In this document: in pieces, positions 1,402-12,893 of the stretch | How positions within the stretch are numbered: the first letter of the stretch is position 1 | How the letters are laid out: every line of letters starts with the position of its first letter | Source of the DNA: Streptomyces sp. RPA4-2 | GTDB lineage: Bacteria > Actinomycetota > Actinomycetes > Streptomycetales > Streptomycetaceae | Assembly (NCBI RefSeq): GCF_012273515.2 | Contig: NZ_CP050975.2 | Coordinates: 4,526,001 to 4,590,000, forward strand | Length of the DNA: 64,000 bases | Direction: 5' to 3' | The notes under the pieces: generated by a model | The model's input: the letters and a program-made list of their open reading frames with translations, nothing else | The model's database searches: none | What the model was told of the DNA's origin: nothing | Translations under genes and position numbers: made by a program

Positions 1402-1914
1402 ATGAGCCTTCGACACGCACTGCTCGGGCTCCTCTCCGAGCACCCCGCCAGCGGCTACGACCTGCTGAAACTCTTCGAGACGTCGCTGGCCAACGCCTGG
1501 CCCGCGACCCAGAGCCAGATCTACACCGAGCTGACCAAACTGGCGGACGCCGGTCTGATCGCGGTGGCGGCCGAGGGCCCGCGGGGCCGCAAGGAATACG
1601 CCCTCACCGCCGAGGGACTGGCCGAACTGCGGCACTGGCTGACCGAGACCAAGCCGCAGCGGACCACCCGCAGCGACACCCTCCTGCGGGTGTTCTTCCT
1701 CGGGGTGCTGACACCGGATCAGGCGCGCGGCTACCTCACCGAGCTCATCGAGCGGGCCGACGAGGGCCACCAGGGCCTGCGTCAGCTGAAGGAGTCCATC
1801 GACTGGACCGACGACAACCTCTCGGTCTACGGCCGGATCGCTCTGGAGTACGGCCTGCGGCTCCACACCATGCACCGCGAGTGGGCCGAGTGGGCGTCCG
1901 GCCAGATCACCTGA
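1402..1914 (+). CDS. PadR family transcriptional regulator
   Basis: 170 residues. The N-terminal winged helix is typical of PadR: MSLRHALLGLLSEHPASGYDLLK, then SQIYTELTKLADAGLI and the wing GPRGRKEYALTAEGLAEL. The C-terminal half (about 95-165) is the Vir_C-type dimerisation region, rich in Leu/Glu and ending HREWAEWASGQI. PadR proteins are ligand- or stress-responsive repressors of nearby efflux or envelope genes. The adjacent divergent membrane protein is the obvious target and the boxes at 1340-1378 the probable operators. The ligand is unknown. Confidence 0.92.
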   Translation: MSLRHALLGLLSEHPASGYDLLKLFETSLANAWPATQSQIYTELTKLADAGLIAVAAEGPRGRKEYALTAEGLAELRHWLTETKPQRTTRSDTLLRVFFLGVLTPDQARGYLTELIERADEGHQGLRQLKESIDWTDDNLSVYGRIALEYGLRLHTMHREWAEWASGQIT

Positions 1915-2698: not shown

Positions 2699-4099
2699 GT
2701 GACCACGACGGTTCCGAGCCCCAACGCGGTCGACGGCTGCTTCCTCAGCTACGAGAGGGACGAGCCCCGGTTCCGGCCCTATGTCGGAGCGGTCCTGGAG
2801 GTGACCGGCTCCTGTCCGGGTCCGGGTCCGGTGCGGGAGCAGATCGCCGACCGTGTGGCCCGCATGCCGAGCCTCGCCTGCAAGGTGACCCGGCAGGGCC
2901 GCCGGACGGTCTGGGAGCTCGATCCCGCCTTCGACCCGCGCCATCACGTCCACGAGATCCCCGTGGAGGACGGCCGGCCCGCGCTCGGCCGGGCCGTGGA
3001 CGCGCTGCTCGGTGAGCCGATCAGCGCCGGCGCGCCCCGCTGGGGGATCTGGCTCATCCACGGCTACTCCCCCGACGGATACGCGCTGTTCTACCGCGCC
3101 CACCACGCCGCCCAGGACGGGCAGGCGGTGCTGGACGCGCTCACGGCGCTGTTCGGGGTGGGTCCCGCCGTACCTCCCCGGCAGGCCGTGGACGAGGCAC
3201 CCGGCGCCCGTGACACCGGCGGGGACCGGGATCCGCTCACGTGGGTGAGGAACATCCCGGCGCGGGCGATCGCGCAGAACGCGGCCGACACCGTACGCGG
3301 CCTGCGGTCCACCCTGACCTGGGCACCGCACCGCCCCCTCACCGGCCGGACGCGGCTGCTGTCGGCGGCCGTGCCGGTGGCCTGGCCCCGGGATGTCGCG
3401 AAGGCCCTCGGGGCCACGCCCAACGACGTCTGCCTGGCCGCGCTGGCGGAGGCGGTACGGGACTGGGTGCCCGCGGAGTGGCGGGCCCGCCCCGGACGCG
3501 GCCGGGAGCTGCACGTGGGACTGCCGGTCAGTCTCCGTCTGCCGGAGGAGCGGTTCGCGGTGGGCAACAGGGTCTCGGCCGTGCGCGTTCCGCTGTCCTA
3601 CTGGGCAAAGTCCCCGGCCGAGCGGGTGGCGGCCGTCGCCCGCGCGACCCGCCGGGTCAGGACCGAGGGGATGCGCCGGGTGCTGCGGGCACAGCTGGAG
3701 TGCCTTCCGGAGTGGCTCGTCTACCGCTTCGTCCGGCAGTCCTGCGCCGCGAGCAGCGCGGTGGACACCTCCGGACTGCTGCGTGTCCCCCGCCGGCTGG
3801 CGGTCGGGGCGGATCCGGTCGACGGGGTGGTGCCCACGCTGTTCCTGCACGGCGACCACCTCTTCGCGGTGTCGTTCCTCTCCTACCAGGGACAGGTGCG
3901 GGTGAGCTTCACCGTCGACCGGGCGCTGGACGACGTCGGTGATCTCGCCGCCTTGTGGGCCGATGCCGTCGAGCGGCTGTGGCACGACGTCACCCCCCTC
4001 GGCCCCGCCGGTAACGCCAGTAACGCCAGTAACGCCAGTAACGCCAGTAACGCCAGTACCAGAGATTCGCACGCGTCCCGTTCCAGGGAGAACTCATGA
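2699..4099 (+). CDS. wax ester synthase/diacylglycerol acyltransferase (WS/DGAT) family protein
   Basis: About 466 residues from the GTG at 2699. The condensation-fold motif HHxxxDG is present as HHAAQDG near residue 140, matching WS/DGAT enzymes, which move an acyl group from acyl-CoA to an alcohol acceptor. Further family features are the conserved GNRVSAVRVPL block and the late SYQGQVRVSFTVDRALDD block near the C-terminus. The C-terminal tail holds a tandem NAS repeat encoded by a 9-bp microsatellite. A short frame (ATG at 2664, 12 codons) with a good ribosome site ends in GTGA over this start, suggesting coupling. It overlaps the next gene by ATGA, so it is probably co-expressed with the reductase. 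Substrate unknown; the neighbours suggest a long-chain amino alcohol or similar lipid. Confidence 0.85.
   Translation: MTTTVPSPNAVDGCFLSYERDEPRFRPYVGAVLEVTGSCPGPGPVREQIADRVARMPSLACKVTRQGRRTVWELDPAFDPRHHVHEIPVEDGRPALGRAVDALLGEPISAGAPRWGIWLIHGYSPDGYALFYRAHHAAQDGQAVLDALTALFGVGPAVPPRQAVDEAPGARDTGGDRDPLTWVRNIPARAIAQNAADTVRGLRSTLTWAPHRPLTGRTRLLSAAVPVAWPRDVAKALGATPNDVCLAALAEAVRDWVPAEWRARPGRGRELHVGLPVSLRLPEERFAVGNRVSAVRVPLSYWAKSPAERVAAVARATRRVRTEGMRRVLRAQLECLPEWLVYRFVRQSCAASSAVDTSGLLRVPRRLAVGADPVDGVVPTLFLHGDHLFAVSFLSYQGQVRVSFTVDRALDDVGDLAALWADAVERLWHDVTPLGPAGNASNASNASNASNASTRDSHASRSRENS
4011..4055 (+). repeat. 9-bp microsatellite (GTAACGCCA x5) inside WS/DGAT gene
   Basis: Five perfect copies of GTAACGCCA encode NAS repeated at the protein C-terminus. 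Because the unit is a multiple of three, copy-number change would alter tail length without a frameshift. Confidence 0.9.
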
Positions 4100-5016
4100 G
4101 CACGACCGGCCCAGAAGGGTCCACCGCCCTGATCACGGGCGCCAGTTACGGCATCGGCGCCGACATCGCCCGCGCCCTCGCCGCCCGCGGCCACCACCTC
4201 GTCCTGGTGGCCCGTAGCGCCGAGCCCCTGGACCGGCTCGCGGCCGCCCTGGAAGCCGAGTTCGGGATCAGTGCCCGTCCACTGGCCGCCGACCTGAGCA
4301 CCGAGGCCGGCATGGATGCGGCCGCCGCGCGCGCGGGCGACGCCGACATCCTCGTCAACAACGCCGGTGCGGGACTCGGTCTGTCCTTCGAGCGCACGGC
4401 GTGGGAGGAGGAGCGGCGGATGCTCGCCCTCAACGTCGTCGCTCCCTCCCGGCTCGTCCACGCGGCACTGCCCGGAATGCTCCGCCGGGGCCGCGGGCGC
4501 ATCCTGAACGTCTCCTCGGTGGCCGCCACCGCGCCGGTCTGGCAGGGCACCACGTACGGCGCCTCGAAGGCGTACGCCCTGGCGCTGACCGAGTCGCTGG
4601 CCCACACGCGCCGTATCCGCACCTCGCCGGTCGCGCTGACCGCCCTCGTACTGGGACACACCGTCTCGGAATTCCACGAGCGGGCCGGTATCGCGCCGTC
4701 CCCTCCGTCGCTCACCCTCGCGTCGCCGTACGTCGCCGAGCGGGCGGTGCGGGCCATCCTCCGGCGCCGCCCGCCCGTCGTCTGTGTGCCGAGCGTCCGC
4801 TACAAAATGCTGGCCGGGCTGCTGCGTCATCTCCCGCGCCGGGTCGTCGCCCTGCCCCTCCTCGCCGACGACTTCACCGTCACCTCGTACGAGGCGCCAC
4901 GGCCGCCGTACGGGGCCGGGGAGCCGCGGACCGGTGGGCGGGAGTCAGCCGGGAGTGACGGCCAGGACGGCGTTCTGCCCGCCGAAGCCCATGGACAGCG
5001 AGAGCGCCAGCCCTAG
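4096..5016 (+). CDS. short-chain dehydrogenase/reductase (SDR)
   Basis: 306 residues. NAD(P)-binding GASYGIG lies at about residues 16-22, NNAG at about 89-92, the catalytic Ser in LNVSSVAA and YGASK (Tyr/Lys) at about 155-159. The form is a classical SDR of the DltE/YqjQ-like group, with a hydrophobic C-terminal segment (YKMLAGLLRHLPRRVVALPLL) that may be membrane-associated. The start overlaps the WS/DGAT stop (ATGA). Its last 72 nt overlap the convergent ketosynthase gene. In this setting it could reduce a 3-keto lipid intermediate made by the ketosynthase or alpha-oxoamine synthase; that role is inferred. The tail after about residue 270 is hydrophilic and may be non-essential. Confidence 0.88.
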   Translation: MSTTGPEGSTALITGASYGIGADIARALAARGHHLVLVARSAEPLDRLAAALEAEFGISARPLAADLSTEAGMDAAAARAGDADILVNNAGAGLGLSFERTAWEEERRMLALNVVAPSRLVHAALPGMLRRGRGRILNVSSVAATAPVWQGTTYGASKAYALALTESLAHTRRIRTSPVALTALVLGHTVSEFHERAGIAPSPPSLTLASPYVAERAVRAILRRRPPVVCVPSVRYKMLAGLLRHLPRRVVALPLLADDFTVTSYEAPRPPYGAGEPRTGGRESAGSDGQDGVLPAEAHGQRERQP

Positions 5017-6165
5017 CCTTCCCTGGCGGCTCTCGGCCGGGATGTCGAGGTCGATCGCCGGATCGGGTTCCTCGAGGTTGGCGGTGGGCGGAACGAGCCC
5101 CTGCTCGACGGCGAGGACGGTGAACGCCGCCTCCACCGCGCCCGCCGCTCCCAGCAGGTGCCCGGTCACCGGCTTGGTGGACGTCACCGGCGGGCGGTGC
5201 GGGAAGAGCCCGGCCAGCACCGCGGCCTCCGCCCGGTCGCCGGCCGGGGTCCCGGTGCCGTGGGCGTTGACGTGGGTCACGTCGCGCGCGCTCGCGCCGG
5301 CCTGCGCGAGGGCCTCGCGGACGGCCGTGCCGAGCCCGGTGCCGTCCGGGTGGGGGCGCACCACATGGTGCGCGTCCGAGGAGGCTCCGAAGCCACTGAT
5401 CCGGGCCCGGGTCCGGGCGCCGCGGGCACGGGCGTCGGCGCTGCGCTCCAGGACCAGCATCCCGGCCCCCTCGCCGATGACGAAGCCGTCCCGTCGCCGG
5501 TCGAAGGCGCGCGGCGCTCCGGTGGGATCGTCGAAGCGGTGCGACAGCGCGCCGATCCGGTCGAACCCGGCGACGTAGAACGGTGTGATGGCGGCGTCGG
5601 CGCCACCGGCCAGCGCGATGTCGCACCGGTCCAGGGCCAGCAGGTCCCGTGCCATACCGAGGGCGGTCGCGCCCGACGCACAGGCGGTGTTGACCGTGCA
5701 ACTGGCGCCCGAGGCACCGAACTCGATGGTCAGCTGGGCGGCCAGCGAGTTGCCCAGCGCGGCGGGCACCGCGTACGGCGACATGTCCTGCGGGCCGGCC
5801 GTCAGCAGCGCGCGGTGCTCGGACTCCAGGGTCTGGGCGCCGCCGGTGCCGGAACCCACGATCACCGCGACGCGCGCGCCGTCCCACCGTGCCGGGTCCA
5901 GGCGCGCGTCGGCCAGCGCCTCCCGCGCGGCGAGCAGCGCCAGTTGCGCACTGCGGTCGGGTCTGCGCGCCCGGGCCCCGCCGAGCCGGGCCGGGTCGAA
6001 GCCGCCCACCCGGCAGGCCAGGTGCGCCGGGACCGTCTCCTGCTCCCACGCCAGTACGGCGGTCGGCAGCCCCTTGCAGACGCGCTCCCAGCCGGGGGCC
6101 CAGCCGTCACCGGCCGGGGTCACCAGTCCGAGGCCCGTGACGCAGACGTCCTGTCGGCCGGTCAT
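4945..6165 (-). CDS. beta-ketoacyl-ACP synthase II-like condensing enzyme
   Basis: 406 residues, the usual FabF length. The catalytic triad is intact: Cys in NTACASGAT (about residue 161), His in NAHGTGTPAGD (about 299) and His in KPVTGHLLGAAGA (about 335). The C-terminal NMG-like SMGFGGQNAVL is also present. It performs decarboxylative condensation of malonyl-ACP with an acyl thioester. The ACP gene ends 7 bp upstream, with AGGTGA at the ACP stop serving as ribosome site, so the two are cotranscribed. Sequence differs from a housekeeping FabF mainly in context: it pairs with a stand-alone ACP and divergent alpha-oxoamine synthase, pointing to a specialised lipid or metabolite. It overlaps the SDR 3' end on the other strand. 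Confidence 0.92.
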   Translation of the reverse strand: MTGRQDVCVTGLGLVTPAGDGWAPGWERVCKGLPTAVLAWEQETVPAHLACRVGGFDPARLGGARARRPDRSAQLALLAAREALADARLDPARWDGARVAVIVGSGTGGAQTLESEHRALLTAGPQDMSPYAVPAALGNSLAAQLTIEFGASGASCTVNTACASGATALGMARDLLALDRCDIALAGGADAAITPFYVAGFDRIGALSHRFDDPTGAPRAFDRRRDGFVIGEGAGMLVLERSADARARGARTRARISGFGASSDAHHVVRPHPDGTGLGTAVREALAQAGASARDVTHVNAHGTGTPAGDRAEAAVLAGLFPHRPPVTSTKPVTGHLLGAAGAVEAAFTVLAVEQGLVPPTANLEEPDPAIDLDIPAESRQGRLGLALSLSMGFGGQNAVLAVTPG

Positions 6166-6172
6166 ACGGAGG

Positions 6173-6391
6173 TCACCTGGCTCCGACGAGGGCGGCCACG
6201 TCCGCGACGGTGAGGGTGGCGCCGATCTCCTCCTCCGTCACCGCCACCCCTTTCTCGCGGCGCAGGACCAGGGCCAGTTCGACGACGGCGATGGAATCCA
6301 GGCCGGCTTCCTCGCGCGTGGCGTCCGGGCTGATGTCATCCTCGGAAAGCCCAAGAGAAACAAGAACGTTTTTGAGTTCTTCGTATGACAC
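6173..6391 (-). CDS. acyl carrier protein
   Basis: 72 residues from GTG at 6391, preceded by GGAGAAAAA. The protein is acidic with four helices; the phosphopantetheine Ser lies in EEAGLDSIAVVEL (DSI instead of the usual DSL). The sequence VSYEELKNVLVSLGLSEDD reads as helix I. It sits directly upstream of the ketosynthase and 111 bp from the divergent alpha-oxoamine synthase, so it likely carries the acyl chain for both. Discrete ACPs beside serine-palmitoyltransferase-like genes are known in sphingolipid-making bacteria; that parallel is inference here. Confidence 0.92.
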   Translation of the reverse strand: MSYEELKNVLVSLGLSEDDISPDATREEAGLDSIAVVELALVLRREKGVAVTEEEIGATLTVADVAALVGAR

Positions 6392-6452
6392 TTTTTCTCC
6401 GTCGCGTGGATAGCAGGGCAGACACCTCAAAGTACCATCTCCAAGGGAACCG

Positions 6453-6469
6453 AATTCTCCGAGAGAATT
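6453..6469. promoter_or_regulatory. perfect inverted repeat AATTCTC-CGA-GAGAATT in divergent promoter
   Basis: A 17-bp dyad with 7-bp perfect arms lies in an unusually AT-rich 111-bp gap between the ACP and alpha-oxoamine synthase genes. It is a candidate operator for coordinate control of the two arms of the cluster. No cognate regulator is identified; the PadR gene 5 kb away uses a different motif. Confidence 0.55.
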
Positions 6470-6502
6470 AATGCGACAGGCGAGCGATGGGCGAACGCGG
6501 GC

Positions 6503-7837
6503 ATGGATATTCTGGAAAAGTGCCGGCCGTGGACCGCGGAGCATCTGCGGGCGACGGGACGGGACTGCTACTTCCGGGCGATCGGCGATACGTTCGACGG
6601 CACGGAGGCCGATTTCGAGGGCCGTCGGGTGGTGGTCGCCGCCTCGCACGACTACCTGGGCCTCTCCGCCGAGCCACGGGTGCGTGAGGCCGCCGTCGCC
6701 GCGGTACGGCGCTTCGGCACCTCGCTGGGAGGGTCCCGGGCGGTGAGCGGCTCGCTGGAACTGCACGAGGAGCTGGAGAACGGGCTGGCGGCGTTCCTGG
6801 GCCACGAGGCGGCCGCCGTTCTTCCCTCCGGATATCAGGCGAATTTGATGCTCGCCCCGCTCCTCGGGGACGGGGACATGGTATTCAGCGACTTTTCCAA
6901 TCATGTTTCGCTGGAAGAGGCCGTCCGTCTCGGCAGGGCGAAGGAACGCAAATTCCTGCACGGCAACCTTGATCACCTCGAGGAATTGCTCCGCACCGCC
7001 GACGGAAACGCAATCGGAAACGAAGGACCCGGAACCGGAGACGACGGGACCCGCACCGGCGGAAAGCTGATCCTCACGGACGGGGTCTTCTCGGTGGACG
7101 GGGACGTCTGCGACCTTCCCGGCCTCATGGAGCTGGCGGGCGCGCACGGGGCGCGGGTCGTCGTCGACAGTTCGCACGACCTCGGGGTGCTCGGCCCGAC
7201 CGGAGCGGGCGCCGGCGAGCACTTCGGGCTGCGTCCCGACCTCGTCACCAGCGCCCTGTCCAAGAGTCTGGCCTCGGTGGGCGGGGTGATCGCGGGCCCC
7301 GCCGAGGTGATCCGCTATCTGCGGTTCCACGCGCGGACGTCACTGTTCACCGCGGCCGCCTCACCGGCCAACGTCGCCGCCGCACTGGCCGCGCTGCGGA
7401 TCCTGCGCGCCGAACCCGAACGGCGCGTACGGGTCCTGGATCTCGCCGAGCGGCTGCACAACGGCCTGCGCGCGCTCGGCTTCGACACCGGGGCGTCCGT
7501 CACGCCGGTGGTGCCGGTGCTGGTCGCGGGACGCGAGCGGTGCATGCGCATGTGGCGGGAGCTGTTCGAGGCGGGAGTGTTCGCCGCGCCCATGGTCCAC
7601 CCGGTCGTCAGGACCGGCCGCGAGGTGCTGCGGGTCACTCTCACCGCCGCGCACACCGATGCCCAACTGGAGCGGGTCCTGGCCGCGTTCGAGCACGTGG
7701 GCCGCGCCGAGGGGGTCATCCCGGGCTCCGCGCCGGCCGCGCACACCCCGGTACGGATCGCCCGCCCGCGCGGCCCCCTGACCGCCGCGCACGACGGCGG
7801 GTCCACCGGTGCGGGAGTACGACGGGCCACCGTTTAG
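6503..7837 (+). CDS. alpha-oxoamine synthase family PLP enzyme (KBL/AONS/SPT-like)
   Basis: 444 residues, fold-type I PLP enzyme. Visible marks: ASHDYLGLS early, GTSLGGSRAVSGSLELHEELE, PSGYQANL, the VVVDSSHDLGVLGPTG block with cofactor-binding Asp and His, and the Schiff-base Lys254 in SALSKSLASVGG. The SKSLAS-GG form is closer in look to serine palmitoyltransferase-type members than to glycine C-acetyltransferase, but family assignment needs a tree. Such enzymes condense an amino acid with an acyl-CoA or acyl-ACP with loss of CO2, giving an alpha-amino ketone. A Gly/Thr-rich insertion (residues about 171-186) and a low-complexity C-tail are unusual. Divergent from ACP/KS, which would supply the acyl-ACP. 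Confidence 0.88.
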   Translation: MDILEKCRPWTAEHLRATGRDCYFRAIGDTFDGTEADFEGRRVVVAASHDYLGLSAEPRVREAAVAAVRRFGTSLGGSRAVSGSLELHEELENGLAAFLGHEAAAVLPSGYQANLMLAPLLGDGDMVFSDFSNHVSLEEAVRLGRAKERKFLHGNLDHLEELLRTADGNAIGNEGPGTGDDGTRTGGKLILTDGVFSVDGDVCDLPGLMELAGAHGARVVVDSSHDLGVLGPTGAGAGEHFGLRPDLVTSALSKSLASVGGVIAGPAEVIRYLRFHARTSLFTAAASPANVAAALAALRILRAEPERRVRVLDLAERLHNGLRALGFDTGASVTPVVPVLVAGRERCMRMWRELFEAGVFAAPMVHPVVRTGREVLRVTLTAAHTDAQLERVLAAFEHVGRAEGVIPGSAPAAHTPVRIARPRGPLTAAHDGGSTGAGVRRATV

Positions 7838-7840
7838 GGC

Positions 7841-7919
7841 CGGGGCCGTACCTGGCCGGGGCCGTACCTGGCCTCGTACCTGCCTGCCGGGAACGTACCT
7901 GGCCGGGACCGTACCTCGT
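7841..7919. repeat. imperfect tandem repeat around CCGTACCTGGCC, convergent gap
   Basis: GGGGCCGTACCTGGCC is repeated twice head to tail and followed by three degenerate GTACCTG copies, filling the gap between the alpha-oxoamine synthase and CopCD stops. No hairpin with a T-run is seen. Confidence 0.7.
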
Positions 7920-9967: not shown

Positions 9968-10636
9968 TCACTCCACCGGTGAAACGCGCGGTGCGGCCGG
10001 GGCGCCCGGGGTGCCGGGCGAACCGGTCCCGAACACCGCTTCCCGGCTCAGGAAGGCGAGCCGGGCGCGCTTCTCGGGCAAGTAGACCCCGGGAAGGTCG
10101 ATTTCGGGAAGCACGATCTCCGGGCCCGGTTCGAAGCCCTGCCGGACCAGGCGGGAGATCGCCTTCGCGTTGCGTGCGTCGGGTTCGACCACCACCCGCC
10201 GCCGGTCGAGGCCGATCAGCACGTAGGTGGTGAAGGCGGTCAGCAGCTTCGAGGACCAGCCGGGCCGGAGGCCCTCGGCTCCCGCGGGACCGATCAGCAG
10301 ATGGACCCCGATGTCGCCGGGCTCGACCTCGTAGCACTCGCTGACCCGGTCGGCCTCGGGCTCGTACGTCTGGAACAGCGCGGCGGGCTCGCCGTCCTTG
10401 ACCACGAGGAAGGCGTGGTGGGTGTCGAGCGAGTCGAGATGGAGGTAGGTCTCCAGGACCTGTTGCCTGGTGAACCCGGTCATGCCCCAGAAGCCGGCGC
10501 GCTCCTGTGTCACCCACCGGTGGATGACGTCCAGGTCGGCGCGAGGGTCGACGGGCAGGACGCGGACGGTGCCGAAGCCGGCGATCTCCTGTTCGTGCAC
10601 GGCCTCGCGGTCGGGGGCGTACGGCTCAGTGGCCAT
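9968..10636 (-). CDS. GNAT acyltransferase of the siderophore (AlcB/RhbD/DesC) type
   Basis: 222 residues. The pattern FGTVRVLPVDPRADLDVIHRWVTQERAGFWGM is the N-terminal signature of the IucB/AlcB/MbtK-like group (Acetyltransf_8), which acylates hydroxylated diamines or lysine in hydroxamate siderophore assembly. GDIGVHLLIGPAG and RVVVEPDARNAKAISRLVRQGFEPG fill the acetyl-CoA-binding core. Its ATG lies 11 nt inside the upstream hydrolase frame, so translation is coupled. A C-terminal tail (about 190-222) is Gly/Pro/Ala-rich. The locus lies behind an iron box. No NIS synthetase or decarboxylase is in the window, so the siderophore pathway is either elsewhere or incomplete. Confidence 0.8.
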   Translation of the reverse strand: MATEPYAPDREAVHEQEIAGFGTVRVLPVDPRADLDVIHRWVTQERAGFWGMTGFTRQQVLETYLHLDSLDTHHAFLVVKDGEPAALFQTYEPEADRVSECYEVEPGDIGVHLLIGPAGAEGLRPGWSSKLLTAFTTYVLIGLDRRRVVVEPDARNAKAISRLVRQGFEPGPEIVLPEIDLPGVYLPEKRARLAFLSREAVFGTGSPGTPGAPAAPRVSPVE

Positions 10637-12882
10637 GGTTCTCCTCCTTGTTCCGGTTGTTCCGGTTGTCCCGGTTACCCCGGTCGTTCCGGTCGTTCCG
10701 GCCGTTCCGGTCGTCCCGGACGGATTCCGGGGTGTCGTGCGGAGCCGGTTCCCGCTCCTCGGTCAGCCGGTTCCAGTCGGTGCGGACGGGGACCAGCGAT
10801 CCCTCGAGCCACAGGGGGAGTTGGTCACGGTGATGGGCCGAGCCGGGAACCCCGGAGGCGCCGAACGGCACCACCCAGAGGCTGTTGTCGCGGTCGGCGA
10901 GGTCCCAGACGTAGCGGGCGGCCGGACCGCGCGCGCTCAGGTCGGTGAGGCCGGGGACGGCCGAGGTGCACAGCACGCAGTCGTGGTCGCCGGCGAGCCC
11001 CGGTTCGTCGTACGCGTCGCCGGCCAGCGCCCGCCAGGGGGCGAGGCGGTGGCTGTCGCCCCAGACGCCGGGCGTCCGCGCGGCCGCCTCCTCGACGGCC
11101 GCGCGCACGAGCCCGGTGCGGTCGACGCCGTACAACTCCTCGGCCTTGAGCAGGTTTTCGAGGGCGAGGCCGATGCGGGGGAGGAGGGCGAGCCAGGGGC
11201 GGAGGATCTCGGGGTACTCGGGCGGGTCGGCCAGTACGGCGAAGACGGGGTGGGCGGCGAGCCGTCGTGCGACCGCCGCGGACCGCCGCGTAGGCCGCCG
11301 CCTCCGTGCTGTCGGCCTCCATACGGCGGTCCCAGAGCAGCAGCCGGTCGCGCAGGGCCGCCGCCCGCGGGGTCAGTCCGTCGAGGGTGGCGAGGTGGTC
11401 CAACAGGGGTGCGGCCGAGGCGAGATGGGTGTCCATGTGGACGGCCGCCATGTCCGCGGCCGGCCAGGCCGTCCTGGAGACGAGCAGGTCGCGGATGCGC
11501 GCGGCGCGGTGCGGCGGGGCGAACTCGACGCCGAGCGGGGCCGCGGGGCCGCGCTGGTTGGCCATCACGGCGATGCCGTCCTCGACCGTCCCGTACGGCA
11601 TCTCGTGCCAGCCCCGCCACTCGTGTCCGGGCTCCCAGGCGGCGACGATCCGGGTGCGGTTGTCCTCGCCGCGGACCGGAACCCGGCCCGCGACCCGGTG
11701 CAGCAGCCCGCCCACGGTGTCGGCGGCCTGGACCACGTTGACGGGTTCGGCCCAGAGGTCGAACGCCCGGTCCACGTCGGCGACTTCGCGGGCGCGCAGA
11801 AGCGGGAGCAGGGCGCTGAAGCCGAGGTCCCCGGTGACGCGGGGCGGGTAGCGGAGGCTGATGGGGCCGACGGCGCCGTGGCCGTCCGCGTCCTTTTCGC
11901 TCCCCCCGGCTCCCGCGTCGCGCCCTTCCGCCGTGCCGTGATCCGTGTCGCTCCCGCCTATGACGACCGGTCCCCGCGCGGTCTCGATCACCTCGACCTC
12001 GACCGGGGTGCCGCCCGCGACCTCGACCGTCTCCACGTGCCGGGTCGCCGCGCGCCACCGGCCGTCCGGGTCCAGTGCCTCCAGGGCCTCTCCTCCCTCC
12101 CCGGTCCGGCGCAGCCGCTCCCGGTACAGGTCCTGGTAGTCGGCCATCGCGTTGGTGATGGCCCAGGCGACGGTGCCGGTGTGGGCGAAGTGGGCGATGC
12201 CCGGGACGCCGGGGACGGCGAGGCCGACGACGTCGAACTCGGGGCAAGAGAGGTGGATCTGCTGGTAGACGCCGGGGTCCTCGATGAAGCGGTGGGGGTC
12301 GCCCGCGATGACCGGCTGCCCGGTGACGGTCCGTTCGCCGGTGACGAGCCAGCCGTTGCTGCCGGAGGTGCCCGGTCCGTCGGTGGCGAAGAGCCCCACG
12401 GCGTCGGCGCCGAGCCGCCGGACGACCTCCTCGCGCCAGAGTTTGGCGGGGAAACCCGCGAACAGGATGTGGGTGGCCAGCCAGACACCGAGCGGGGTCC
12501 AGGGCTCCCAGCGGCCCGGTACGAGTCCGGAGCGGGCGAACTCCGGTGTGCGGCGGGCGCCTTCGGCGAGCCCTTCGTTGACTCCCTCGACGTACGAGAC
12601 GACCCACTCGGCGGTCTCCGGGTCCCCGCCCTCCAGGGCGGCGAAGCATCGTCTCGCGGTGTCGTCGAGCCGGGCCCGGCGGGCGAACACGTCCCAGGCG
12701 GCCTCCCCGGCGCCGAGGAACGCGGCGGAGGTGCCCTGCGAGCGGTGCCGTTCGACCTCCAGCTGCCACGCGCGGTCGACGGCGGTGGTACGGCCCTGGG
12801 CGTGGGCGAGTTCATGCGCGCTCCCGGCACGCAGATGGGGGATCCCCCAGGGGTCACGGTAGAGCTCGGCAGTCACGGTCAT
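10626..12882 (-). pseudogene. penicillin acylase (Ntn hydrolase) family protein, disrupted by 10-bp duplication
   Basis: From ATG at 12882 (GTG 12888 possible) the frame shows the family's alpha chain (ELYRDPWGIPHLRAGSAHELAHAQGR), then GTSGSNGWLVTGERT, where the Ser of SNGW is the expected autocatalytic N-terminal nucleophile of the beta chain. GDPHR and ITNAMADYQDLY follow. At 11271-11290 the frame breaks. The next frame carries on with RRLAAHPVFAVLADPPEYPEI and ends NKEENHGH. Joined length about 750 residues, normal for the family. The tail has Arg/Asn repeats from imperfect 9-bp DNA repeats at about 10651-10720. Penicillin-amidase-like DesG proteins are reported in some desferrioxamine clusters, so a side-chain acyl exchange or deacylation role is plausible. 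As read, the gene makes a truncated product. Confidence 0.85.
11271..11290. repeat. 10-bp tandem duplication causing the acylase frameshift
   Basis: GACCGCCGCG occurs twice in direct tandem. Removing one copy restores one continuous frame reading AYAAVARRLAAHPVFAV on the minus strand. The duplication is not a multiple of three, so it explains the break fully. Confidence 0.9.
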
Positions 12883-12893
12883 CCCCACTTTCC

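What the first reader, a model, noticed from the sequence alone, without database searches (positions are those of the whole stretch)
2699..7837. Compact five-gene lipid cluster: alpha-oxoamine synthase, ACP, ketosynthase, reductase and WS/DGAT
These enzyme types together would build an acyl-ACP, condense it with an amino acid to an alpha-amino ketone, reduce the ketone, and O- or N-acylate the product. That is the logic of sphingoid/ceramide synthesis, where a discrete ACP beside serine palmitoyltransferase is known in some bacteria. I know of no described Streptomyces pathway with this set. Seen: intact catalytic residues in all five (AOS Lys254, KS C-H-H, ACP DSI, SDR YxxxK, WS/DGAT HHxxxDG), overlapping starts and a shared divergent promoter. 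Inferred: the product.
Basis: partly seen in the sequence, partly recalled or inferred. Interest (0 to 1): 0.8.

Follow-up and report, generated by a model that had tools for sequence, protein, structure and literature searches.

The report
Streptomyces sphingolipid-like cluster, unusual acyltransferase
Five neighbouring genes in a Streptomyces probably build an acylated, ceramide-like lipid, using an acyl-attaching gene set that relatives also use beside terpene genes, in place of the usual bacterial ceramide enzyme.

Summary
The five genes are real, with intact catalytic motifs, and the layout recurs in two genomes of another genus. The oxoamine synthase (AOS) groups with solved serine palmitoyltransferases (SPT); trees joining its clade to KBL or BioF are rejected. 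Its other actinobacterial relatives look like canonical ceramide operons: in 17 of 18 genomes the AOS abuts a GNAT acyltransferase (bCerS-like) and 15 of 18 loci carry a CerR-like epimerase. The window's clade ("group I", 5 genomes) has no GNAT match genome-wide and no such epimerase at the locus; an SDR is there instead, and 4 of 5 loci have a WS/DGAT-type acyltransferase with its own ACP and ketosynthase (KS). That ACP-KS-WS/DGAT set is kin to one standing beside drimane-type terpene cyclases in 7 of 7 loci. I read the cluster as AOS+SDR making a sphingoid-type amino alcohol and ACP-KS-WS/DGAT acylating it. Amino acid, acyl source and N- versus O-acylation are inferred. New variant of a known kind.

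The parts
2699..4099 (+). WS/DGAT-type (condensation-like fold) acyltransferase, 466 aa, motif YRAHHAAQDGQA
4096..5016 (+). SDR ketoreductase, 306 aa, TGASYGIG and YGASK
   Evidence: Pfam PF00106; best NCBIfam mycolate reductase NF040690, 139 bits, cut-off 380; found with the AOS in group I loci, degraded in relative L042
4945..6165 (-). FabF-type ketosynthase, 406 aa, C162/H302/H336
   Evidence: Pfam; NF005589 FabF subfamily 400 bits, cut-off 387; TIGR03150 406 bits, cut-off 494; motifs; trees
6173..6391 (-). discrete acyl carrier protein, 72 aa, DSI
   Evidence: PF00550 37.2 bits, cut-off 20.8; motif
6392..6502 (.). 111-bp divergent intergenic region ACP<>AOS (presumed promoters)
   Evidence: layout; length and sequence poorly conserved in 3 group I relatives; no sigma-70 consensus
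6503..7837 (+). alpha-oxoamine synthase, SPT-like, 444 aa; H134, D222, H225, K254, R377 conserved; clade-specific H49 and A251

Best explanation
A two-module cluster for an acylated sphingoid-type lipid. Module 1: the AOS (SPT-like, PLP) condenses an amino acid, probably serine or alanine, with a long-chain acyl thioester from general metabolism to a 2-amino-3-ketone, and the SDR reduces the ketone to an amino alcohol. Module 2, an acylation cassette: the KS extends an acyl chain on the cluster's own ACP, the general fatty acid synthase reduces it, and the WS/DGAT-type enzyme transfers the acyl group to the amine or hydroxyl of the amino alcohol, giving a ceramide-like amide or an ester. Shown: gene content, catalytic motifs, SPT-clade placement of the AOS, absence of a match to the GNAT of related clusters, common descent of KS and WS/DGAT (and sequence kinship of the ACP) with a cassette in terpene clusters. 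Inferred: every substrate, the order of steps, acyl-ACP as donor, N- or O-acylation, and the product.
For: AOS in one clade with two solved SPTs and L001, 97/93*; its actinobacterial/myxobacterial clade joined with KBL, BioF or KBL+Tth AOS rejected, p-AU 1.8e-5, 7.6e-5, 4.7e-5. SPT catalytic residues conserved (roles from passages of PMC6148460). GNAT next to the AOS in 17 of 18 non-group-I actinobacterial AOS genomes and no match in 5 of 5 group I genomes. CerR-like epimerase in 15 of 18 non-group-I and 0 of 5 group I loci. The one non-group-I genome without GNAT, G120 (L048, 11-kb contig), likewise has a WS/DGAT (of the group II kind), an SDR and a KS fragment by the AOS and no epimerase, a second case of the same swap. 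KS, ACP and WS/DGAT in 4 of 5 group I loci and 7 of 7 terpene-cyclase loci; all 7 terpene-type KS and group I in one 17-row clade, 100/99*, group I nested inside; WS/DGATs of both kinds in one clade, 99*. WS/DGAT and AOS rows share a contig length in 10 cases (31 AOS and 24 WS/DGAT rows compared). WS/DGAT of 56% or more found in only 2 of 392 genus genomes, both with a group I AOS.
Against: G090 (L043) has a group I AOS and an SDR but no KS, ACP or WS/DGAT match within the fetched 20 kb, next to a fatty acid desaturase, so the acylation cassette is not obligatory. The SDR of relative L042 is degraded. AOS misses the curated SPT cut-offs: 314 of 640 bits for NF047600, where BioF ties at 313.9. 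The clade-specific H49 and A251 may mean another amino acid. Group II clusters hold GNAT and a more distant WS/DGAT together (3 of 4 loci), so a WS/DGAT can add to the GNAT rather than replace it. More distant WS/DGATs are common: 70 of 392 genus genomes at E 1e-20 or better, and the own genome has a second one at 30%, so N-acylation or O-acylation elsewhere cannot be excluded. No product is known.
Confidence: 0.55

Rival explanations
1. KS and ACP make a special acyl-ACP that is the substrate of the AOS, and the WS/DGAT then uses ordinary acyl-CoA.
For: ACP and KS are divergent from, and next to, the AOS in all four group I loci that have them; an ACP gene directly precedes the AOS in Roseomonas mucosa; a different KS lineage and an ACP accompany the AOS in group II.
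Against: The same ACP-KS-WS/DGAT set occurs with a terpene cyclase and no AOS in 7 of 7 loci; in 3 of 10 second-tier WS/DGAT loci a FabF-like KS at 50-51% is also nearby, without AOS; 14 of 18 non-group-I AOS loci have a GNAT and no match to the window's KS or ACP.
Confidence: 0.25
2. The AOS is no SPT: it uses another amino acid, and the aminoketone is reduced or cyclised to a non-sphingoid product.
For: Group I AOS has H49 (17 of 17; 58 N and 2 Y in 60 other rows) and A251 (17 of 17; 60 of 60 others T) near the active site (by pattern, H49 in 28 of 31 database rows, 3 unread); SPT and BioF models tie.
Against: Clade placement; catalytic residues intact; position 49 is Tyr in the solved Sphingomonas SPT 2x8u, so it varies in true SPTs; sister operons carry GNAT plus epimerase as in ceramide synthesis.
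Confidence: 0.15
3. WS/DGAT is purely an O-acyltransferase, leaving a free amine or a base N-acylated elsewhere.
For: The WS/DGAT family is named for O-acylation; in terpene clusters the acceptor would be a hydroxyl if the product is drimenol-like (inferred); condensation-like acyltransferases also stand in GNAT-bearing operons (L068 by Pfam; NZ_CP108712.1), where they must do something other than replace the GNAT.
Against: No match to the GNAT anywhere in the group I genomes, so N-acylation would lack its usual enzyme.
Confidence: 0.35
4. Chance neighbours without a joint pathway.
For: Convergent and divergent transcription rather than one operon; patchy distribution (13 of 392 genus genomes with an AOS at E 1e-100 or better, 3 of them group I).
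Against: Same layout in two genomes of another genus at 60-78% identity.
Confidence: 0.04

Closest known systems
Bacterial ceramide pathway Spt-bCerS-CerR (Caulobacter type; also reported for several Actinobacteria)
   Same: SPT-clade AOS; a ketoreductase; an acyltransferase; a discrete ACP occurs next to the AOS in some bacteria (Roseomonas). Sister Streptomyces operon on NZ_CP108712.1: AOS-GNAT-epimerase-condensation domain, overlapping genes
   Different: No match to the GNAT in the whole genome and no such epimerase at the locus; SDR and WS/DGAT instead; own KS
PfSgaAB, PKS-derived sphingolipids of Pseudomonas fluorescens (PMC12134224, passages)
   Same: Chain-building enzyme plus AOS with SPT activity as a secondary-metabolite route
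   Different: There an iterative type I PKS; here discrete KS and ACP, plus an acyltransferase
Drimane-type clusters of Streptomyces (cav cluster, PMC11035983, passages)
   Same: Terpene-cyclase loci L145-L151 match its class II cyclase logic (Nudix and P450 seen by Pfam in L147) and share the ACP-KS-WS/DGAT set with the window
   Different: The window has AOS+SDR in place of the cyclase; the passages seen name no ketosynthase or acyl carrier protein for the cav cluster
WS/DGAT wax ester and triacylglycerol synthases (TIGR02946; PDB 6chj, 7nxg)
   Same: Fold and HHxxxDG
   Different: Below the family cut-off (148.6 of 310 bits); motif YRAHHAAQDG; clade apart from the 10 more distant WS/DGAT rows in the tree

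Membership tests
Serine palmitoyltransferase (AOS family) | PLP-site residues equivalent to SpSPT His159, Asp231, His234, Lys265, Arg390 | tested here: met
   H134, D222, H225, K254, R377 by alignment; roles in PMC6148460 passages
Serine palmitoyltransferase (AOS family) | Groups with characterised SPTs, not KBL/BioF | tested here: met
   (ALAS and CqsA not in the tree)
Serine palmitoyltransferase (AOS family) | Score above NCBIfam SPT equivalog cut-offs | tested here: not met
   NF047600 314 of 640; NF047599 284 of 500; NF047603 216 of 670 bits. Hence filed as SPT-like AOS, not as SPT
Serine palmitoyltransferase (AOS family) | Uses serine and a long-chain acyl thioester | not testable with these tools
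   needs enzyme assay
Bacterial ceramide pathway Spt-bCerS-CerR | GNAT-type N-acyltransferase (bCerS-like) | tested here: not met
   no match in the own genome and in 0 of 5 group I genomes, against 17 of 18 other AOS-bearing actinobacteria. Query was an actinobacterial GNAT; Caulobacter bCerS itself was not compared
Bacterial ceramide pathway Spt-bCerS-CerR | CerR-like NAD epimerase at the locus | tested here: not met
   0 of 5 group I loci, 15 of 18 others; rest of the genome not searched for it
PKS-AOS (SgaAB type) | Iterative type I PKS next to the AOS | tested here: not met
   only a discrete KS and ACP
WS/DGAT family | WS_DGAT Pfam domains and HHxxxDG | tested here: met
   H135 H136 D140 G141 invariant in 34 aligned sequences
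WS/DGAT family | TIGR02946 subfamily cut-off | tested here: not met
   148.6 of 309.95 bits
Drimane-type terpene cluster | class II terpene cyclase | tested here: not met
   no tblastn match to the L147 cyclase in the first 25 kb of the window

The most novel reading that the evidence does not exclude
The WS/DGAT-type enzyme is a third, unrelated solution to ceramide formation: fed by its own KS and ACP it N-acylates the sphingoid base, having displaced the GNAT-type bacterial ceramide synthase after an acylation cassette passed from terpene clusters to sphingolipid clusters of Streptomycetaceae.
Probability: 0.3. Interest if true: 0.8.

Novelty: new variant of a known kind. Interest (0 to 1): 0.6.

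Why it matters
[quoted passage not shown] It also shows a movable ACP-KS-acyltransferase set used on two quite different scaffolds, which makes the function of uncharacterised WS/DGAT homologues in actinomycete clusters testable, and warns that searches which demand bCerS and CerR will miss such producers.

Tried and rejected
Promoter and terminator consensus scan found nothing. The divergent region is too variable among four loci to name an operator. PDB sequence search for the GNAT gave nothing. Contig-length coincidence is only a proxy, since each row lists one contig. AU tests on group I alone reject any partner, SPTs included, because they break the actinobacterial clade, and are not used; the test of the whole clade is. 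There the clade plus the two SPTs alone is not rejected (p 0.083), and with L001 it is the free tree. Group II KS is not the same KS: a tree holding group I and group II KS together is rejected (p-AU 1.9e-7), so KS and ACP came beside an AOS twice. KS relatives at 58-61% (L152-L157, 6 loci) lie in another conserved cluster (domains scanned in L156 only: desaturase, class III aminotransferase, AurF-like) with neither AOS nor WS/DGAT match. Close-relative scan: 4 of 120 genomes with an AOS at E 1e-90 or better, only the own one group I, so the cluster is not a clade-wide trait. The GNAT match in Bacteroidota is weaker evidence than it looks: the two Bacteroidales AOS kept in the careful tree fall outside the SPT clade. 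Genome scans score only a few first-look candidates per genome (4), so misses are possible. The gene caller for neighbourhoods was a home-made GC-frame script that miscalls some genes; presence and absence were therefore taken from tblastn, which can miss distant ACPs. The WS/DGAT tree is 'quick' (SH-aLRT only). That 7xq4 is a drimenyl diphosphate synthase is recalled; PDB calls it SQHop_cyclase_C domain-containing protein.

Papers: PMC12134224, PMC12979504, PMC11334938, PMC11087976, PMC11035983 and PMC6148460 were seen as passages and search listings only; Stankeviciute 2022 and Wang 2020 were not held and are known from passages and the reference list of PMC12134224 and recall.
Full report
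What is there. Five intact genes lie between 2699 and 7837: WS/DGAT-type acyltransferase and SDR on the plus strand (4-bp overlap), KS and ACP on the minus strand (KS convergent with the SDR, 72-bp 3' overlap), and the AOS on the plus strand, 111 bp from the ACP start. The window is G000:C1:4526001-4590000 of a 9.86-Mb one-contig genome; the closest named database relatives of the AOS, WS/DGAT and KS are Streptomyces and Kitasatospora proteins.

What the AOS is. Its own genome also has a true KBL (656 bits, cut-off 460) and a BioF-like ORF beside a biotin-synthase-like ORF (name by position and tree), so the cluster AOS is a third paralogue. NCBIfam cannot place it: SPT-CFB 314.1 and BioF 313.9 bits, both under cut-off. 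The tree can: in a careful 42-row tree the AOS, its actinobacterial and myxobacterial relatives, the solved SPTs 3a2b and 2x8u and L001 form one side of a branch with 97/93 support. Holding the 30-row actinobacterial/myxobacterial clade together with KBL, with KBL plus Thermus AOS and L025, or with BioF is rejected (p-AU 1.8e-5, 4.7e-5, 7.6e-5); together with the two SPTs it is not (p 0.083). Residues equivalent to His159, Asp231, His234, Lys265 and Arg390 of SpSPT are kept (roles from passages of PMC6148460). Two positions are fixed in the window's clade and differ elsewhere: His49 (17 of 17; 58 N and 2 Y among 60 other rows) and Ala251, three before the active-site Lys (17 of 17; Thr in 60 of 60 others). 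The solved Sphingomonas SPT has Tyr at position 49, so this alone does not exclude SPT activity, but the amino acid is open. In the window the His-Ala-Ser triad, called strictly conserved in PMC6148460, reads His-Val-Ser (of 31 group I database rows 15 have V, 16 A).

What the neighbours of related AOS genes show. I fetched neighbourhoods from 12 further genomes of the genus and 9 of the family, and had a 4.2-kb stretch of one class member (L075). With the window that is 23 AOS loci. Five form group I in the AOS trees: the window, L042, L066 and L067 with KS, ACP and WS/DGAT (SDR intact in the window, L066 and L067, degraded in L042), and L043 with AOS and SDR only. L066 and L067 are of another genus, probably Kitasatospora (their contig lengths equal those of Kitasatospora rows). 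The other 18 loci are of a different kind. A 377-aa GNAT (PF00583 in L049) abuts the AOS: the whole-genome search found it in 17 of these 18 genomes, each time next to the AOS, the exception being G120. A CerR-like NAD epimerase is there in 15 of 18. A named example is the plasmid of Streptomyces sp. NBC_01001, with AOS, GNAT, epimerase and condensation-domain protein in overlapping genes. GNAT homologues were also found in 6 of 7 genomes of other phyla that I picked from the 25 loci (23-34% identity; not in the Stutzerimonas), though the Bacteroidales AOS tested lie outside the SPT clade, and in Roseomonas mucosa about 10 kb from an ACP-AOS pair. The actinobacterial operons are what one expects of Spt-bCerS-CerR clusters, described for several Actinobacteria (PMC12134224 passage); direct comparison with Caulobacter bCerS was not possible.

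The key contrast. None of the five group I genomes (own, G090, G108, G534, G546) has any GNAT match, in a search that found it in 17 of the other 18 actinobacteria. In four of the five loci a WS/DGAT enzyme stands instead, from a sharply bounded family: 23 proteins at 53% identity or more, then a drop from E 6e-118 to 3e-33. In 392 genus genomes a WS/DGAT of 56% or more was found only in the own genome and G108, both group I, while distant WS/DGATs (E 1e-20 or better) occur in 70 of 392 and the own genome has a second one at 30%. G120, the one other AOS genome without GNAT, also has a WS/DGAT (nearer to group II's), an SDR match and a KS fragment at its locus and no epimerase. AOS and WS/DGAT rows share a contig length in 10 cases, AOS and KS in 8, all three in 6 (31, 24 and 25 rows compared).

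Where KS, ACP and WS/DGAT come from. Searching the family with the KS gave 20 of 297 genomes at E 1e-135 or better; of the 18 places outside group I, I fetched 13. Seven (L145-L151) have KS (64-73%), ACP (54-62%) and a WS/DGAT (29-32% to the window's) with a terpene cyclase and no AOS; the other six (L152-L157) have neither AOS, WS/DGAT nor cyclase matches. The cyclase has SQHop domains (3 of 3 tested), DVDD in 7 of 7, and, for L147, closest solved structures 8zg1 and 7xq4 (7xq4 recalled as drimenyl diphosphate synthase). A NUDIX gene and a P450 accompany it in L147, as in the published drimane cluster (PMC11035983 passages). In a careful tree all seven terpene-type KS and the group I KS form one clade (100/99), with group I nested among the terpene-type ones (terpene-type KS not one group in 200 of 200 bootstrap trees; the nesting branch itself has 86/80), while group II KS and the own paralogue L114 stand apart. 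Group I and terpene-type WS/DGATs form a clade (99*, quick tree) apart from group II and the more distant WS/DGATs and share YRAHHA(A/F)QDG in the five group I and five terpene-type copies read. So ACP-KS-WS/DGAT is best seen as a movable acylation set, probably taken over from terpene clusters. Of 10 second-tier WS/DGAT loci, 3 also have a FabF-like KS (50-51%) nearby and none an AOS.

Novelty. Sphingoid chemistry by an SPT-clade AOS is known; a version without a match to the bCerS-like GNAT and CerR-like epimerase, with an acylation set shared with terpene clusters, was not found in print in my searches, which cover open-licence papers only and of which I read listings and passages.

Noticed in passing
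10626-12888 (-): A penicillin-amidase family gene is split over two reading frames: 10825-12888 matches profile positions 2-504, 10626-11135 positions 556-673. Frameshift or sequencing error; not mended.
   Followed up: partly
4006-4058: 9-bp tandem repeat, 5.9 copies, in the coding 3' end of the WS/DGAT gene, giving an (Asn-Ala-Ser) run in the low-confidence C-terminal tail.
   Followed up: partly
7838-7916: 16-bp imperfect tandem repeat, 5 copies, starting right after the AOS stop codon.
   Followed up: no
L005:7163-11137: Verrucomicrobia IMCC26134: KS and AOS matches in one long open frame, suggesting a PKS-AOS fusion.
   Followed up: no
L112:4769-13011: Streptomyces sp. NBC_00523 plasmid: AOS (36%) with KS, MaoC, AMP-ligase, carrier protein, KASIII and SDR, a different discrete-enzyme AOS cluster.
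   Followed up: no
L111:5121-9158: Streptomyces sp. NBC_00158 plasmid: SDR-AOS fusion beside a large ketosynthase protein, like an AOS-ended type I PKS.
   Followed up: no
L152-L157: A conserved cluster with KS 58-61% like the window's and a small ACP; in L156 also desaturase, LPG-synthase-like protein, AurF-like oxygenase (weak), class III aminotransferase and aldehyde dehydrogenase.
   Followed up: partly
L043:6001-11102: Group I AOS and SDR without KS/ACP/WS-DGAT, next to a fatty acid desaturase and an FAD/2Fe-2S reductase.
   Followed up: partly
1402-1914 (+): PadR-family regulator upstream of the cluster; a PadR gene also lies upstream of the AOS operon on NZ_CP108712.1. Kinship not tested.
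   Followed up: no
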